DNA of 64,000 nucleotides from Thomasclavelia spiroformis DSM 1552 (GTDB taxonomy: Bacteria; Bacillota_I; Bacilli_A; Erysipelotrichales; Coprobacillaceae): assembly GCF_025149465.1 (NCBI RefSeq), contig NZ_CP102275.1:1798001-1862000 (forward strand), in the 5' to 3' direction. Positions 7,913 through 15,043 of the stretch are shown piece by piece. How positions within the stretch are numbered: the first letter of the stretch is position 1; every line of letters starts with the position of its first letter. The position numbers were made by a program, and so were the translations under genes. Below the pieces are notes generated by a model, which was given only the letters and a program-made list of their open reading frames with translations, was not told the DNA's origin and searched no databases.

Positions 7913-8512
7913 TCAAATAAATATTAAGTAATTTCTGTAATTCATTTACAAAACGATATATATGAAAACCATCACAAACAACATGATGAACTTAAATTGC
8001 TAAAGGTAATAAAATCTTATCATTTTCTTTATAATATTTATCCATTGTAAATATCGATTGTAAAAAACCATAACTCTTTTGAAAATTCAAATTAGACCCT
8101 TTAAATAAAGTCCATAAAATCATTGAAACAGGAAAATTATTTTTAAGAACATTCGCTGTTACAAATAATCCCCTTTGATTTGCATACTTAAGCATATCAT
8201 CTTCATACGCTTTACAAAAATCTTCATATTTACAATAATATTCTGTCCAAAGATTAGAAAAAGTTTTCGTATCTTGATGAAATATCGTATAACTCGCTAG
8301 CATTGTATCAAACATACCTAATCTACTATTTTAATCAATTGCCATTTTAAATTCATCATATTTATTTACAACTTTAGTAATATAATACAACATCGCTGGA
8401 TATATAGTTATATCCATTTTAATTGTCATACTATAAGTACATGGAACATTAAAAAAAATAGTGATCAAAATATTCTTTTCCAATTACCTTTATCAATAAG
8501 TTTAAATTCCAT
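7908..8512 (-). pseudogene. Chloramphenicol acetyltransferase remnant (type A CAT)
   Basis: The remains of a CAT trimer subunit, which would acetylate chloramphenicol with acetyl-CoA. Joining frames gives a nearly full-length protein: the start MEFKLIDKGNWKR, then after a frame change CTYSMTIKMDI and YPAMLYYITKVVNKYDEFKMAID, an in-frame TAA, then RLGMFDTMLASYTIFH through NFPVSMILW and IFTMDKYY to LPLAI. There a TAA replaces the expected CAA (Gln). Beyond it the frame is still open and encodes the active-site segment VHHVVCDGFH (HHxxxDG). So there are at least one frameshift and two nonsense changes, and the gene is dead. It lies 20 bases after the TIGR04076 gene, probably one former transcription unit. 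Confidence 0.85.
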
Positions 8513-8941: not shown

Positions 8942-9766
8942 TTATTCAATCCAATATTTATCATCAGCAAAATCATATACTAAACACTTATCATGACCAG
9001 CAAATAAATAATCACTATCTATACTATTAAACATATGAGTTATGCGATTTATGGCATTATATATATTTTCAAACTCACCAGGTATAATAGTTTCATCATT
9101 TTTATATAATACAAAAATATTACGATTACTTCCTTGATACCCTTTAAAATAAGCCCTATTCGTATCATAAAAAGTGATTAAATAACTATATAATTTATTT
9201 TTTAATTCATCCATAGAATCATATAAATATAATTCATATTTATCATCCAACATATAATATATTAATGTTACAAATAAATAATCATTTCCTTTTCTTAGTA
9301 TTCGATAATGATATTCACCACCAAAACTATGATTTTCTAATGAATCATAACAATCTTTTAATACTGTATCAATAAATTTTCTTTGTGCTTTATTTAAATA
9401 ACAAATTTGTTTAGGCTTTTCTTGATCCATTTTCTTAACCAATTTCATAAATTTTTTAATTACAGCATCATCAGTATCAATAACATAATCCCAAACAATT
9501 ATTTTTATAAAATATGGATTAGATTTCAATCCCGTATGATATATCAATTCCTGTTCTAATTCTAAATAGTCTTTTAAAATAACATCTTCTTTATTTACAC
9601 TATCAATAATTTGATCATTATGAATAAATTCATAAAACTTGCATTTATTCAATAACAATTTTTCATTAATTATTTCACTTAACATTTTAAATGTTATATT
9701 TTCATCAACATCTATTGTTATTTTATTTTCCTTATATGCTACTTTTAGTCGAAATTTATTAATCAT
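8942..9766 (-). CDS. Hypothetical protein, N-terminus resembling the pRiA4b ORF-3-like fold
   Basis: I do not recognise this protein with certainty. It is soluble, charged and has no signal peptide. The first 90 residues (FRLKVAYKENKITIDV, then ITFKMLSEIINEKL, CKFYEFIHND, ILKDYLELEQELIYHTG) resemble in pattern the beta-alpha pRiA4b ORF-3-like family found in mobile elements. The remaining 180 residues have no family I can name. The start used here is MINKFRL, eight codons inside the longest frame, because a GGGGGA site lies just before it. The longest frame would overlap the exonuclease stop by 8 bases. Probably co-transcribed with the exonuclease gene upstream. Confidence 0.55.
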   Translation of the reverse strand: MINKFRLKVAYKENKITIDVDENITFKMLSEIINEKLLLNKCKFYEFIHNDQIIDSVNKEDVILKDYLELEQELIYHTGLKSNPYFIKIIVWDYVIDTDDAVIKKFMKLVKKMDQEKPKQICYLNKAQRKFIDTVLKDCYDSLENHSFGGEYHYRILRKGNDYLFVTLIYYMLDDKYELYLYDSMDELKNKLYSYLITFYDTNRAYFKGYQGSNRNIFVLYKNDETIIPGEFENIYNAINRITHMFNSIDSDYLFAGHDKCLVYDFADDKYWIE

Positions 9767-9782
9767 TTTATCCCCCACAAAG

Positions 9783-10568
9783 CTATTCACTTATTTTAAA
9801 AAGAACTGCTGCCATGTGCTTACATTTATTACCACTAGAAGCATTTGGACAATCACAAACTATTTTCTTTATGCTACTTTTATTAAATTCAATTGATATC
9901 ATATGTGTAATATCTTCTTTAACAGAAGCAACTATTTGTTTATCCCCATAATAAATAACATCAACTAAATCATCTTCATAATATTTTTTACCTTGTTTAA
10001 TAACTAATGGTTCAAATAATAACTTCCAATTATTCAAATATGACTTTTCAATTTTACCATTTTTATATGCTTCAATTTGTTCAAAACAATATCTAGTTGC
10101 CTTTACATCTTCTAATGCATCATGAGCTGCAAAATTGTATCCAAAATATTTAGCACATGTTGATAATGACTGCCATTTATAACCTCCATGATATCCTCTT
10201 TCACCATAAATATAAGCAAAATCTTTCATCGGATCTTTAAATACATATTTACTTATATCTATTCCATAATTCTTTAACATTCCTTGTTCAAAAGCAATAT
10301 TATAACATACAATAAATTCACTATTATCAAATATTTCTATTATCCTATCAATATAGCTTTCAAAACAAAGCTTATCTTTTACCATCAATGGTGAAATACC
10401 ATTTATTCTTTGAGCACTTGGCCAAGAAAAATGATGCTTAGGTTTACACAATTCATTAATCAAAACTTCATCATCCTGATTAACGATTGCTACTTGTACA
10501 ACTTCATCATTATGATATCTATTGACTCCAGTAGTCTCAAAATCTAAAACCACATACTTATTTTTCAT
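9783..10568 (-). CDS. DEDDh 3'-5' exonuclease fused to a C-terminal SWIM zinc finger
   Basis: The N-terminal 180 residues form a DnaQ/RNase T-type exonuclease: YVVLDFETTG (DxE), a central CYNIAFEQGML segment, and HDALEDVKATRY (H and D of ExoIII), so the DEDDh residues appear present. The C-terminal 50 residues read IVCDCPNASSGNKCKHMAAVLFK, a CxC...CxH SWIM zinc finger, a small nucleic-acid or protein-binding module. The start is the ATG preceded by GAGGTG; an upstream in-frame GTG is too close to that site. The substrate is unknown. It heads the leftward pair with the 8942-9766 gene and is divergent from the Nudix gene. Confidence 0.85.
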   Translation of the reverse strand: MKNKYVVLDFETTGVNRYHNDEVVQVAIVNQDDEVLINELCKPKHHFSWPSAQRINGISPLMVKDKLCFESYIDRIIEIFDNSEFIVCYNIAFEQGMLKNYGIDISKYVFKDPMKDFAYIYGERGYHGGYKWQSLSTCAKYFGYNFAAHDALEDVKATRYCFEQIEAYKNGKIEKSYLNNWKLLFEPLVIKQGKKYYEDDLVDVIYYGDKQIVASVKEDITHMISIEFNKSSIKKIVCDCPNASSGNKCKHMAAVLFKISE

Positions 10569-10805
10569 ACTCACACCTCATGTAAGTAAAGTTTATCATA
10601 ATTTATTAAATCATGCTATTTATATTATTAATTACTAAACAGTAAATGAACACATATTTCTAACATTATCAAAATTAATTATAAATTATTACATATTTTA
10701 ATGTTTGATTTAATCATACAAATTCAATGATTTAAATATAGATATAACACATTTCTTTAAATAAAAGACTAATATTGTTATAATATCGAACAGGAAGGTG
10801 ATTAA

Positions 10806-11192
10806 ATGAAAACAATAAAAGTTGCTGCTGCAATTATAAAAAAAGACAATAAAATATTGATTGCTAGTAGAAAAACAGGTGAATTTGCGGGAATGTTTGA
10901 ATTTCCTGGTGGAAAAGTAGAACCTGGAGAAACAAGTAAACAAGCTCTAATTAGAGAAATTCAAGAAGAATTGGAAACATCTATAAATATTGATGAATTT
11001 TTCATGAATGTTAATTATACATATCCAACATTTATCTTAGATATGGATTGTTTTATTTGTTCATTAAAAGATGAACAAATAACATTAAATGTTCATGATT
11101 CAATTAAATGGATCACATTAGATCAACAAGATATTAATTGGATTCCTGCTGATATTCAAATTATTGAAAAACTCAAAGAACGAGGAATCTAA
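10806..11192 (+). CDS. Nudix hydrolase, MutT-like
   Basis: 128 residues with a perfect Nudix box: G36-x5-E42-x7-R50-E51-x2-E54-E55 (GGKVEPGETSKQALIREIQEEL spans it). The short MutT-like body and the IASRK segment fit (deoxy)nucleotide or nucleotide-derivative cleanup, such as 8-oxo-dGTP. Its stop is two bases before the ATG of the PLD-helicase-DUF3427 gene, so the two are almost certainly translated from one message. Some DUF3427 helicases occur with Nudix proteins, which suggests a functional pair, although the substrate is unknown. The site before ATG is GGAAGGTGA. Confidence 0.92.
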   Translation: MKTIKVAAAIIKKDNKILIASRKTGEFAGMFEFPGGKVEPGETSKQALIREIQEELETSINIDEFFMNVNYTYPTFILDMDCFICSLKDEQITLNVHDSIKWITLDQQDINWIPADIQIIEKLKERGI

Positions 11193-11194
11193 AC

Positions 11195-14056
11195 ATGACG
11201 CTAACATTACAACCAAACATAAATTTACATACACTAAATACAGTTAATCAAACATATCAACCACAATTATTATTCAACGATTACAAACAAGGTATGAAAC
11301 TATCATATGAAATAATCCAACAATTAAACTCATGTGATAGTTTTCAATTATCAATTGCCTTTATTAGTTTATCAGGACTAGCTACACTAAAACAAACATT
11401 ACTAGATTTACAAAACAAAAACATTTCTGGTAAAATCATCACTTCAACTTATTTAGGTTTTAACGAACCAAAAGTATTCAAAGAATTACTTAAATTCAAT
11501 AACCTAGAAATAAGAATATATGATGATCCTAAAATTGGTTTTCATCCAAAAGGTTATATTTTCAAAAAAAATGACACATATAACATTATCATTGGTAGCT
11601 CTAATTTAACCCAAAACGCACTATCAATAAACCAAGAATGGAATTTAAAACTCTCTTCAACATACAATAGTGATATTTCAAAACAAGTTTTAAAAGAATT
11701 CAATCAACAATGGCAAAATTCATTTCCTTTAACAAACCAATGGATCAATGAATACAGCAAAACATACACTAAACAAAAAAATAAAATACAACTAAAAACA
11801 AATACAAAAATCAAGCCCAACAAAATGCAAATAGCTGCATTAAACGCACTAAAATCAATTAGAAACGAAAATAAGAATAAAGCCTTACTAATATCCGCAA
11901 CAGGTACCGGTAAAACTTATTTAAGTGCTTTTGATGTCAAAGCATTTAATCCAAAAAGAATGCTCTTTGTAGTTCATCGAGAAAACATTGCACAAAACGC
12001 CATGATGTCATTTCAAAAAATAATCAACAATCATAGTTTTGGCATTTTTACTGGTAATAAAAAAGAAACTGATGCTGATTACATCTTTTCAACAATTCAA
12101 ACAATTCATAAACAAGAATATCGTAAAATGTTTGATCCAGATGATTTTGATTACATCATTATCGATGAAGTTCATCGAGCTGGAGCTAATTCTTATCAAG
12201 AATTAATAAATTATTTTAAACCAAAGTTTATGTTAGGAGTGTCTGCTACTCCTGAAAGAAGCGATGATTTTGATATTTATCAAATGTTTGATTATAACAT
12301 TGCTTATGAAATTCGTTTACAACAAGCAATGGAATATGATTTACTTTGTCCTTTTCATTATTATGGAATAACTGATTTACAAGTCAACGGAGTATCACTA
12401 GAAGATAAAAGTGATTTTAATCATTTAACTTCTCAAAGTCGTGTTGATCATATTATTGAACAAATAAATAATTATGGATTTTCAGGTGATCGTGTCCGTG
12501 GTTTAGTCTTCTGTAGTCGTAAAGGTGAAGCTAAAGAGTTATCTAATTTATTTAATCAACGTGGTTATAAAACTGTTGCTTTAACTGGTGAAGATGATGA
12601 AAATAAAAGACGTGATGCTATGGATAAACTAGAAACAGATGATTCTGTTGATTATCTAGATTATATTTTTACAGTTGATATTTTTAATGAAGGAATTGAT
12701 ATTCCTAAAGTTAATCAAGTAATTATGCTTCGACCAACTGAGTCAGCAATTGTATTTGTACAACAATTAGGTCGTGGTTTACGCAAAGATCATTCAAAAG
12801 AATGTGTAGTTGTGATTGATTTTATTGGTAATTATGAAAAGAATTTTTTAATTCCAATTGCTTTAAGCGGTAATCAAAGTTATAACAAAGATACATTAAG
12901 AAGATTTGTTAGTGAGGGTTCTTTACTTATACCTGGCGCCTCAACAATTAATTTTGATCGTATTTCAAAAAAGAAAATATTTGAATCAATTGATAAAGCT
13001 AATTTTTCTGATATAAAAATCATCAAAGAAAGCTATTTACAATTAAAACAAAAACTTGGACGTATTCCAAGTTTACAAGATTTTGATAAATATGATTCTA
13101 TTGATGTCTTAAGAATTTTTCAAAACAAAAATCTTGGTTCATATCATAAATTTTTATCAAAATACGAAAAAGATTATTCAATAAAATTCAACCCTATCCA
13201 AGAACAATATCTAGCATACATATCAACAAAACTAGCTTCTGGGAAAAGAATTCATGAATTAGAAGCAATTAAGGTTTGTATAAAAAACCAATCAGATTTA
13301 CTTAATAATCTAAAAGAAAAGCTAAAAAATGTATATGATATTGATTTACCTAAAATTAGTCATACTACTATTATAAATATATTAAGTCAAAATTTTGCAA
13401 CCGGCGGTGCCAAAGCAACCTTTAAAGATGCTATTTTTATTGATAAAAATTTAAAGATATCAACACAATTTAAAGCTCAATTAAATGATCTAAATTTTAA
13501 ACAACAAATCATGGATCTTATCAATTTTGGAATAACTCGTTATAAAAAAAATTATACCAATACATATAAAGACACTTCACTATGCTTATATAAAAAATAT
13601 ACTTACGAAGATGTTTGTAGATTACTAAATTGGGAGCAAAATCTAGTTCCTTTAAATATTGGTGGCTATAAATATGATAAACATACAAATACTTTTCCTG
13701 TATTTATTAATTATGATAAAGAGGAAGGTATAAGCAAAACAATTAAATATGAAGATAAATTAATTGATCAAAATACAATAATTTGTTTTTCTAAACCAAA
13801 ACGTACATTAACATCAGAAGAAGTAGTTAGAATATACAACGAAGATACAAATCATGTTAAAATACATCTTTTCATTAGGAAAAATAAAAATGATAACACT
13901 TCAAAAGAATTCTATTACTTAGGACTTATGCATACATATGGAAAACCAATTCAAACAATCATGCCAAATACTAATAACAATGTTGTACAATTCACTTATA
14001 AACTCGAAAATGAAATTAGAAAAGATATTTTTGATTATATAACTAATAATGATTAG
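11195..14056 (+). CDS. Superfamily II helicase with N-terminal phospholipase-D nuclease domain and C-terminal DUF3427
   Basis: A 953-residue nuclease-helicase. Residues 1-180 are a PLD-type domain with a single H117-x-K119 motif and a GSSN segment at 134-137; one motif per chain implies a dimeric nuclease site. Residues 205-570 form an SF2 helicase: Walker A ATGTGKT (K240), DEVH (324-327), GVSATPERSDD, the second RecA domain with GEDDENKRR, and motif VI QLGRGLRKD. The remainder, about 380 residues, fits DUF3427. This architecture is common in bacterial restriction- or defence-like loci but its function is not established to my knowledge. It is coupled to the Nudix gene (2-base gap) and followed by a shared terminator. 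Confidence 0.88.
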   Translation: MTLTLQPNINLHTLNTVNQTYQPQLLFNDYKQGMKLSYEIIQQLNSCDSFQLSIAFISLSGLATLKQTLLDLQNKNISGKIITSTYLGFNEPKVFKELLKFNNLEIRIYDDPKIGFHPKGYIFKKNDTYNIIIGSSNLTQNALSINQEWNLKLSSTYNSDISKQVLKEFNQQWQNSFPLTNQWINEYSKTYTKQKNKIQLKTNTKIKPNKMQIAALNALKSIRNENKNKALLISATGTGKTYLSAFDVKAFNPKRMLFVVHRENIAQNAMMSFQKIINNHSFGIFTGNKKETDADYIFSTIQTIHKQEYRKMFDPDDFDYIIIDEVHRAGANSYQELINYFKPKFMLGVSATPERSDDFDIYQMFDYNIAYEIRLQQAMEYDLLCPFHYYGITDLQVNGVSLEDKSDFNHLTSQSRVDHIIEQINNYGFSGDRVRGLVFCSRKGEAKELSNLFNQRGYKTVALTGEDDENKRRDAMDKLETDDSVDYLDYIFTVDIFNEGIDIPKVNQVIMLRPTESAIVFVQQLGRGLRKDHSKECVVVIDFIGNYEKNFLIPIALSGNQSYNKDTLRRFVSEGSLLIPGASTINFDRISKKKIFESIDKANFSDIKIIKESYLQLKQKLGRIPSLQDFDKYDSIDVLRIFQNKNLGSYHKFLSKYEKDYSIKFNPIQEQYLAYISTKLASGKRIHELEAIKVCIKNQSDLLNNLKEKLKNVYDIDLPKISHTTIINILSQNFATGGAKATFKDAIFIDKNLKISTQFKAQLNDLNFKQQIMDLINFGITRYKKNYTNTYKDTSLCLYKKYTYEDVCRLLNWEQNLVPLNIGGYKYDKHTNTFPVFINYDKEEGISKTIKYEDKLIDQNTIICFSKPKRTLTSEEVVRIYNEDTNHVKIHLFIRKNKNDNTSKEFYYLGLMHTYGKPIQTIMPNTNNNVVQFTYKLENEIRKDIFDYITNND

Positions 14057-14062
14057 TACATT

Positions 14063-14084
14063 AAAAGACGTTTAAGCGTCTTTT
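14063..14084. terminator. Bidirectional terminator between helicase and macrodomain genes
   Basis: An 8-bp stem (AAAAGACG with CGTCTTTT) with a 6-base loop and a T-run on both strands lies between two convergent genes, 7 bases after one stop and 1 base before the other. Confidence 0.85.
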
Positions 14085-14085
14085 T

Positions 14086-14547
14086 TCATTTATACAACAC
14101 TAAATAAACATCCATATCATTGCCAATTAAAAACTTATTAATTGTCTCTTTAGCAACTTCTAATGCCTCATTGTAAGGATATCCATATATCCCTGATGAT
14201 ATTAATGGAAAAGCAATAGAACGAAGTTTATATTGCTTTGCTAGAAGTAAAGAATTACGATAAGCAGCTTCCAAAACCTCTCTTTCACCATGGTTTCCAT
14301 CACGATAAATTGGACCCACTGCATGAATAATATATTTTGCCTTTAAATTATATCCCTTTGTTATTATCGCTTCACCTGGTTTACAATACCCTTTTTGATC
14401 ACATTCATTTTGTAATTCTTTAGCTCCAGCTTTATTAAAAATAGCTCCACAAACACCACCACCTTGGCGCAAATATGAATTTGCTGCATTTACAATTGCA
14501 TCACTTTCTATTTCTGTAATATCCCCATTTATAATTTTAAATCCCAT
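14086..14547 (-). CDS. Macrodomain protein (ADP-ribose binding/deacylase, YmdB-like)
   Basis: A single macrodomain of 153 residues that binds ADP-ribose or its O-acyl derivatives. Diagnostic segments are present: INGDITEIESDAIVNAAN (the ribose-binding D and N), the GGGVCGAI loop, and the second phosphate loop LISSGIYGYP. It is slightly short at the C-terminus compared with 170-180 residue relatives, but all core strands appear present. It sits convergent to the Nudix-helicase pair, which might reflect nucleotide-derivative metabolism, but convergent position alone is weak evidence. An AAGGAGG site precedes the ATG. Confidence 0.92.
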   Translation of the reverse strand: MGFKIINGDITEIESDAIVNAANSYLRQGGGVCGAIFNKAGAKELQNECDQKGYCKPGEAIITKGYNLKAKYIIHAVGPIYRDGNHGEREVLEAAYRNSLLLAKQYKLRSIAFPLISSGIYGYPYNEALEVAKETINKFLIGNDMDVYLVLYK

Positions 14548-14659
14548 AAACCATCCTCCTTTTATACTATAGTAACACTATCTATTTTACTGCTCAAGAG
14601 CAAAAAAAAACTGCTTTTCATCAATAAAAATGTTATTATATAAGCAAAGGAGAATTAAT

Positions 14660-15043
14660 ATGGAAGCAAAAGAAATTTTATTAAACAAACAAAACTTTGC
14701 TGTTATTGGTGTAACTACTAATCAAGAAAAATATGGTTATAAAATATATCAGCGATTAAAAAAATTAAATAAAAATGTATATGGTGTTTCCCCAATTTAT
14801 AATGAATTAAATGGAGAAACAATTTATCCTAATTTATCTAGTATTGATAATCAAATAGATGTTGCTGTTTTTGTTGTTAATCCCAAAATAGCACTAACAT
14901 ATATTGAGAAATGCAAAAAATTAAAAATAAAACATATTTGGTTACAACCAGGTACTTATGATGATAACTTGATCAAAATAATTAAAGAATCAAAACTAAA
15001 TTATTATCTTAACTGTGTCTTAGTTGAAAGTGAAAATATGTAA
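14660..15043 (+). CDS. CoA-binding (YccU-like) Rossmann protein
   Basis: 127 residues with the CoA-binding domain pattern: NFAVIGVTTNQEKYGYKI (nucleotide loop), VYGVSPIYNE, IDVAVFVVNP and the conserved KHIWLQPGTYDD, ending near C-x-L-V. The function of this widespread family is unknown; members bind CoA or a related nucleotide. The start chosen is the ATG with AAAGGAGAA upstream; an ATG ten codons earlier lacks a ribosome site. It stands alone, 50 bases before an amidohydrolase with its own AGGAGG site. Confidence 0.87.
   Translation: MEAKEILLNKQNFAVIGVTTNQEKYGYKIYQRLKKLNKNVYGVSPIYNELNGETIYPNLSSIDNQIDVAVFVVNPKIALTYIEKCKKLKIKHIWLQPGTYDDNLIKIIKESKLNYYLNCVLVESENM

What the first reader, a model, noticed from the sequence alone, without database searches (positions are those of the whole stretch)
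8942..14547. Cluster of accessory nucleic-acid and nucleotide genes around a PLD-helicase-DUF3427/Nudix pair
Within 5.6 kb there are a DEDDh exonuclease-SWIM fusion, an unidentified protein with possible mobile-element affinity, a Nudix hydrolase coupled (2-base gap) to a PLD-helicase-DUF3427 protein, and a macrodomain protein. Together these cover nuclease, helicase, nucleotide hydrolysis and ADP-ribose functions, as in many defence or repair islands. No named system is claimed.
Basis: inference. Interest (0 to 1): 0.65.

Follow-up and report, generated by a model that had tools for sequence, protein, structure and literature searches.

The report
Restriction enzyme with nucleotide-cleaning partner gene
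Two of the five genes form a real unit, a DNA-cutting defence enzyme that attacks DNA carrying methylated cytosine, coupled to a small enzyme that probably destroys the methylated-cytosine building block so that the cell does not build it into its own DNA and cut itself; the other three genes are unrelated neighbours.

Summary
All five genes exist where stated, but they are not one island. The only conserved unit is Nudix + PLD-helicase-DUF3427 (10806-14056, +). The large protein is a full-length SauUSI-type type IV (5-methylcytosine-dependent) restriction enzyme (PDB 7clg, 774 bits). The Nudix is PADLOC candidate PDC-S07.

The pairing is strong: 35 of 47 full-length SauUSI-like genes in 392 genomes of the phylum have this Nudix next door (about 0.1 expected by chance). 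At least 13 gene-order switches and one single-ORF fusion occur, and pairs reach Bacteroidota, Actinomycetota and an archaeon. In close relatives of the window's genome that lack the Nudix, Vsr (the 5mC-deamination repair endonuclease) takes its place, and one plasmid encodes a Nudix-Vsr fusion.

The nearest characterised Nudix enzymes, NudG and MutT2, hydrolyse 5-methyl-dCTP, and the NudG-type Asp116 is near-invariant. Genomes with SauUSI-like genes mostly lack C5-cytosine methylases.

Best explanation: the Nudix removes 5-methyl-dCTP recycled from foreign DNA, so the genome stays free of 5mC and is not self-restricted. The pairing is shown; the substrate and role are inferred. Co-location alone was already reported in Streptococcus suis. 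The exonuclease-SWIM operon and the macrodomain gene are bystanders.

The parts
10806..11192 (+). Nudix hydrolase, 128 aa, NudG/MutT-like, PADLOC PDC-S07; proposed 5-methyl-dCTP pyrophosphatase; Asp116 in a PAD motif
   Evidence: Pfam NUDIX_4 60 bits; PDC-S07 158 bits; AF2 pLDDT 91, top PDB matches include MutT2-5mdCTP 5zro Z 19.6 and NudG 2rrk Z 18.2; Asp116 in 141 of 144 relatives
11195..14056 (+). [quoted passage not shown]
   Evidence: PADLOC mREase_IV 786 bits over residues 19-951; PDB 7clg (SauUSI) 774 bits over 20-951
11312..11713 (+). PLD-family nuclease domain (aa 40-173); H117, K119, S135, N137, E148 invariant
   Evidence: Pfam PLDc_2 44 bits; residue counts in 99 relatives
11807..12784 (+). 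SF2 helicase-like ATPase (ResIII aa 205-355, Helicase_C aa 433-530)
   Evidence: Pfam 136 and 49 bits; Walker A K240, D324-E325 invariant
13217..14044 (+). DUF3427: coupler and SRA-like 5mC-reading domain (aa 675-950)
   Evidence: Pfam DUF3427 273 bits; SRA fold of the homologous region of SauUSI described in PMC7913695
10756..10784 (+). promoter-like site (TTTAAA-17-TATAAT, extended -10) before the Nudix gene
   Evidence: consensus scan, 10 of 12; region as a whole not above shuffles
14063..14084 (+). terminator-like hairpin after the restriction gene
   Evidence: 9-pair stem followed by T-run
9783..10574 (-). bystander: DEDDh exonuclease-SWIM protein
   Evidence: Pfam; in 7 other genomes of the genus it lies away from SauUSI
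8942..9790 (-). bystander: unidentified 282-aa protein, operon partner of the exonuclease
   Evidence: adjacent to the exonuclease in 7 genus relatives; AF2 pLDDT 84, no PDB fold match at E<=0.001
14086..14547 (-). bystander: macrodomain protein, backbone gene of the genus
   Evidence: Pfam Macro 142 bits; homologue in 2 of 80 SauUSI loci

Best explanation
10806-14056 is a two-gene type IV restriction module. SauUSI-like enzyme: its DUF3427/SRA domain reads 5-methyl- or 5-hydroxymethyl-cytosine in incoming DNA, the SF2 motor translocates and the PLD dimer cuts (this mechanism is known for SauUSI and inferred here by homology). Nudix: hydrolyses 5-methyl-dCTP (possibly 5-hydroxymethyl-dCTP) to the monophosphate and PPi. 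When methylated foreign DNA is degraded, its 5-methyl-dCMP could be recharged and built into the host chromosome, making target sites; the Nudix breaks that loop. A type IV enzyme has no methylase to protect the host, so here 'self' is kept unmodified by cleaning the dNTP pool. Shown: gene identity, pairing, its repeated re-formation, partners tied to 5mC, absence of C5-methylases. Inferred: Nudix substrate, anti-suicide role.
For: Identity. Pairing: in the family of 43 genomes, 10 of 11 Nudix genes of this type adjoin a SauUSI-like gene and the eleventh lies at a contig end; 35 of 47 in the phylum sample, as 10 upstream, 16 downstream, 9 convergent; 66 of 80 named loci, 62 within 300 bp. Genome-level co-occurrence odds ratio 59, p 8e-28. 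99 pairs: Mantel r 0.62, p 0.001; 13 arrangement switches on each tree; one SauUSI-Nudix fusion ORF. 5mC link: Vsr replaces the Nudix beside SauUSI in five genomes of the genus, with 98% identical SauUSI in a Vsr/Nudix sister pair; Nudix-Vsr fusion; two Nudix without SauUSI adjoin MrcB_N proteins, one a NOV_C protein, one a C5-cytosine methylase. Substrate: nearest characterised relatives NudG and MutT2; NudG 5-methyl-dCTP kcat/Km 1.3e6 vs CTP 4.7e4 M-1 s-1 (PMC5158307); Asp116 as in NudG, Asn in MutT. Host: no C5-methylase in the window's genome; 10 of 47 SauUSI genomes have one vs 225 of 345 others, p 1e-8. Literature: 5-methyl-dCTP is readily incorporated and thought to come from degraded methylated DNA (PMC10742078).
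Against: No substrate was measured. Asp116 also occurs in relatives of other stated function (3hhj), and MutT2 is reported to hydrolyse other dNTPs too (PMC10742078). The only 5-methyl-dCMP kinase named in the papers read is phage-induced, so the recycling step is unproven in the host. The Nudix is not universal: five Gemella SauUSI loci and six genomes of the window's genus lack it. SauUSI alone is active when cloned in E. coli (PMC3874153), though E. coli has NudG. Some strong Nudix copies have no 5mC-related neighbour (G293, G183, G178). The single C5-methylase neighbour is not significant alone. C5-methylase counts are not corrected for phylogeny.
Confidence: 0.55

Rival explanations
1. 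The Nudix is itself an anti-phage effector: it depletes modified dNTPs (5-hydroxymethyl-dCTP, 5-methyl-dCTP) or dCTP that phages need, so a phage must choose between unmodified DNA and being cut by SauUSI.
For: Same linkage data. Type IV enzymes act on phage hmC DNA, and phage kinases for 5-methyl-dCMP and 5-hydroxymethyl-dCMP are known (PMC10742078). PADLOC lists the gene as a defence candidate.
Against: Pushing phages to unmodified C would help them escape the partner enzyme. No phage-side data were found. The Vsr swap and Nudix-Vsr fusion fit maintenance of host DNA better than attack.
Confidence: 0.17
2. The Nudix forms a complex with, or regulates, SauUSI (for example by sensing or removing a nucleotide), and its dNTP specificity is incidental.
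For: One natural single-chain fusion, frequent overlap or gaps under 20 bp, correlated divergence r 0.62.
Against: SauUSI is active alone in vitro and in E. coli (PMC3874153, PMC7913695). Convergent arrangements (18 of 99 pairs) and loci without the gene argue against an obligate complex. The Nudix box and PAD motif are kept in nearly all relatives, pointing to catalysis.
Confidence: 0.13
3. The Nudix is an ordinary 8-oxo-dGTP sanitiser (MutT) that happens to travel with the restriction gene.
For: Best NCBIfam score is MutT TIGR00586, 92 bits, just under its cut-off of 98.
Against: It is absent from 32 of 43 family genomes, so it is not a housekeeping MutT; it tracks SauUSI instead. It carries Asp, not MutT's Asn, at position 116.
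Confidence: 0.1
4. The five genes together form one defence or repair island.
For: They are neighbours in this genome.
Against: No co-occurrence beyond the pair: exonuclease and partner 0 of 80, macrodomain 2 of 80; the exonuclease operon lies elsewhere in the genus; a terminator lies between SauUSI and the macrodomain gene.
Confidence: 0.03

Closest known systems
SauUSI (type IV restriction enzyme of Staphylococcus aureus, PDB 7clg)
   Same: Same length (953 aa), full-length homology, same order PLD - SF2 ATPase - coupler/SRA (DUF3427), catalytic H and K and Walker motifs kept
   Different: The acidic residue of the H-x-K-x4-E motif is Lys here (common in the family); sequence specificity unknown; here preceded by a Nudix gene
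PADLOC phage defence candidate PDC-S07
   Same: The Nudix matches this model at 158 bits, as do all 11 aligned relatives; in S. suis PDC-S07 and RM type IV are co-located in 23 of 23 cases (PMC12813430)
   Different: That report gives statistics in one species only; no partner rule across phyla, fusion or mechanism was found in the papers read
E. coli NudG (Orf135) and mycobacterial MutT2
   Same: Same fold and closest characterised relatives, Asp in the PAD motif (NudG), 5-methyl-dCTP hydrolase activity known
   Different: About 28-33% identity; E. coli nudG sits in an unrelated neighbourhood; function described as general pool cleaning
Vsr very-short-patch endonuclease beside C5-methylases
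   Same: A 5mC-related maintenance gene; takes the Nudix's place beside SauUSI in five genus relatives
   Different: Acts on T:G mismatches in DNA, not on nucleotides

Membership tests
SauUSI-type type IV restriction enzyme | PLD nuclease + SF2 ATPase + DUF3427/SRA in one chain, full-length homology to SauUSI | tested here: met
   Pfam and PADLOC domains; 7clg 774 bits over 20-951
SauUSI-type type IV restriction enzyme | Catalytic residues kept (PLD H and K; Walker A/B) | tested here: met
   H117, K119, N137, E148, K240, D324, E325 invariant among 96-99 relatives; the acidic residue of HxKx4E is Lys here
SauUSI-type type IV restriction enzyme | Cuts DNA only if it carries 5mC or 5hmC | not testable with these tools
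   Indirect support only: no C5-methylase in the host and depletion of C5-methylases in SauUSI genomes
PDC-S07 (PADLOC candidate) | Match to model PDLC04899 | tested here: met
   158 bits, residues 1-125
NudG-like 5-methyl-dCTP pyrophosphatase | Nudix box and NudG-type Asp in the PAD motif | tested here: met
   Nudix-box glutamates invariant; Asp116 in 141 of 144, Asn in E. coli MutT
NudG-like 5-methyl-dCTP pyrophosphatase | NCBIfam equivalog PRK10546 cut-off | tested here: not met
   84 bits against a cut-off of 156: related to NudG, not an ortholog, so it is not filed as NudG
NudG-like 5-methyl-dCTP pyrophosphatase | Hydrolyses 5-methyl-dCTP | not testable with these tools
   Needs an enzyme assay
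MutT 8-oxo-dGTP diphosphatase | NCBIfam TIGR00586 cut-off | tested here: not met
   92.3 bits against 97.9; absent from most genomes of the family

The most novel reading that the evidence does not exclude
Modification-dependent restriction systems carry their own metabolic immunity gene: a 5-methyl-dCTP (or 5-hydroxymethyl-dCTP) hydrolase that keeps the host genome free of the modified base, the counterpart for type IV systems of the protective methylase of type I-III systems.
Probability: 0.45. Interest if true: 0.8.

Novelty: new variant of a known kind. Interest (0 to 1): 0.62.

Why it matters
SauUSI is described as a major barrier to gene transfer into Staphylococcus aureus (PMC7913695). 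How cells with 5mC-dependent nucleases avoid cutting themselves when methylated nucleotides are recycled was not addressed in the papers read here. A dedicated pool-cleaning partner would answer it, would make self/non-self discrimination depend on nucleotide metabolism, and would give a function to a candidate defence gene (PDC-S07) reported in several surveys. It can be tested with one enzyme assay and one deletion.

Tried and rejected
1) Five-gene island: rejected. 2) ADP-ribose link between Nudix and macrodomain: rejected; the Nudix is NudG/MutT-like and the macrodomain gene is not conserved with it. 3) The C5-methylase next to the Nudix in G413 taken alone: not significant (one adjacency among hundreds of methylase genes); kept only as an illustration, since the same site in sister genome G302 holds SauUSI. 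4) Fold of the unidentified protein: no PDB match at E<=0.001, only weak FERM or ubiquitin-like partial matches; unresolved. 5) Plasmid search for Nudix neighbours: mixed; a SauUSI pair in Hymenobacter and a Vsr fusion in Collinsella were informative, several others have unrelated neighbours. 7) KwaB-like weak match of the CoA-binding protein 14630-15043 (19 bits): judged chance.

Full report
What is there. The window lies in a complete 2.53-Mb genome. A genome of the same genus (G040) has a contig identical to a record titled Thomasclavelia sp. MAG.139, so the window is most likely from Thomasclavelia (Coprobacillaceae). All five genes of the finding are present at the stated positions with the stated domains. 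The Nudix and the large gene are co-directional with a 2-base gap. A promoter-like site with an extended -10 lies before the Nudix gene and a terminator-like hairpin follows the large gene (consensus matches only).

The large protein. The 953-aa protein is homologous over its whole length to SauUSI, the type IV restriction enzyme of Staphylococcus aureus (PDB 7clg, 953 aa, 774 bits; PADLOC mREase_IV 786 bits). SauUSI cuts DNA carrying 5-methyl- or 5-hydroxymethyl-cytosine in S-mC-NGS sites, using an SRA-fold reader, an SF2 motor and a PLD nuclease dimer (PMC7913695; PMC3874153). Here the PLD His117, Lys119, Asn137 and Glu148, the Walker A lysine and the DExH acidic residues are invariant among relatives. 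The acidic residue of SauUSI's H-x-K-x4-E motif is Lys here and is usually Lys or Arg in the family.

The island is not a unit. In the genus, the exonuclease-SWIM gene and the unidentified gene form their own conserved operon in seven other genomes, away from SauUSI and in some next to the DEAD-box helicase gene. Neither occurs in any of 80 SauUSI loci from other organisms. A macrodomain homologue occurs in 2 of 80 and in the genus it flanks the site as a backbone gene.

The pair is a unit. In 43 genomes of the family, 11 carry this Nudix. Ten sit beside a SauUSI-like gene and the eleventh is at a contig end. In 392 genomes of the phylum, 35 of 47 full-length SauUSI-like genes have the Nudix as immediate neighbour, in three arrangements (10 upstream, 16 downstream, 9 convergent); a divergent Nudix just under the threshold was seen in one more (G300). 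Random placement would give about 0.1. Among 80 named loci, 62 have it within 300 bp and 4 more within 1.9 kb, including a Bacteroidota single-cell genome, Collinsella and Methanobrevibacter; 8 have none although both flanks are held and 6 are cut by contig ends (5 of these 14 are Gemella). Over 99 pairs the distances of the two proteins correlate (Mantel r 0.62, p 0.001), and at least 13 switches of arrangement are needed on either tree. One genome encodes both as a single 1100-aa chain (L227). The link has therefore been kept or re-made many times, which argues for a shared function rather than inheritance of a fixed gene order.

What the Nudix acts on. Its closest solved relatives are 5x1x, 3gwy and NudG (2rrk) by sequence, and by fold a tied top group that includes MutT2 in complex with 5-methyl-dCTP (5zro, Z 19.6). 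[quoted passage not shown] Position 116 is Asp in 141 of 144 relatives and in NudG but Asn in E. coli MutT. It falls under the NudG and MutT equivalog cut-offs, so it is a relative of both and an ortholog of neither. It is missing from most genomes of the family and tracks SauUSI, so it is not a housekeeping MutT.

Links to 5-methylcytosine independent of SauUSI. (i) In the window's genus, SauUSI-like genes without the Nudix have a divergent Vsr gene 23-100 bp away in five genomes. Sister genomes G038 and G039 have 97.9% identical SauUSI proteins and shared downstream genes, yet one carries Vsr and the other the Nudix. Four of the five Vsr genomes carry a C5-methylase, three of them on the same contig. 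(ii) A Collinsella plasmid encodes a Nudix-Vsr fusion. (iii) Some Nudix copies without an intact SauUSI adjoin MrcB_N proteins (G395, G273), a NOV_C protein (G066) or a C5-cytosine methylase (G413), or SauUSI remnants (G142, G204); others (G293, G183, G178) have unrelated neighbours. In G413 the methylase unit occupies the site where the sister genome G302 has SauUSI, with the Nudix kept. (iv) The window's genome has no C5-cytosine methylase; 10 of 47 SauUSI genomes have one against 225 of 345 others (p 1e-8), and in the sampled family members it is 0 of 7 against 9 of 9. Over all 43 family genomes the trend for Nudix + SauUSI holds: 1 of 10 (that one broken) against 17 of 26. These counts are not corrected for phylogeny.

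Mechanism proposed. The SauUSI-like enzyme destroys methylated incoming DNA. The resulting 5-methyl-dCMP, or 5-methyl-dCTP from other sources, could be re-used by host polymerases, which accept 5-methyl-dCTP readily (PMC10742078), planting targets in the chromosome. The Nudix hydrolyses 5-methyl-dCTP and prevents this. Shown here: identities, linkage, repeated rearrangement, fusion, 5mC-related partners, absence of methylases. Inferred: substrate, recycling, self-protection. SauUSI works alone when cloned in E. coli (PMC3874153), but E. coli has NudG, so that experiment does not speak against the idea.

Novelty. Co-location of PDC-S07 with type IV systems is published for Streptococcus suis (23 of 23; PMC12813430). 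No paper found in nine searches proposes a role for it or joins SauUSI with 5-methyl-dCTP hydrolysis; the library holds open-licence papers only, so absence is weak evidence.

Noticed in passing
L199, L200, L201, L202, L022 (genus relatives of the window): SauUSI-like genes without the Nudix have a divergent Vsr endonuclease gene in its place, often near C5-cytosine methylases; SauUSI proteins of sister genomes with Vsr and with Nudix are 97.9% identical.
   Followed up: partly
L220:4932-5921: Collinsella plasmid gene encoding a single protein with an N-terminal Nudix and a C-terminal Vsr domain.
   Followed up: partly
L187 and L240: Same chromosomal site in two genomes of one genus: one holds MTaX1 + C5-cytosine methylase + Nudix, the other SauUSI + Nudix.
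   Followed up: partly
window 7992-8315 (-): Fragment (107 aa) of a chloramphenicol acetyltransferase-like gene (CAT, 100 bits, profile positions 80-185 only); the rest of the frame appears degraded.
   Followed up: no
window 8942-9790 (-): Genus-level protein of unknown fold, operon partner of the exonuclease-SWIM gene; model confident (pLDDT 84) but no significant PDB fold match.
   Followed up: partly
L203 (G042): The SauUSI-like gene is flanked by a SWIM-domain protein and genes resembling a Wadjet (SMC-like) system.
   Followed up: no
L217 (Selenomonas plasmid pSRC2): A Nudix of this kind is followed by an EVE-like protein (weak, E 0.003), a nucleoside deoxyribosyltransferase and a GmrSD_N protein.
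   Followed up: no
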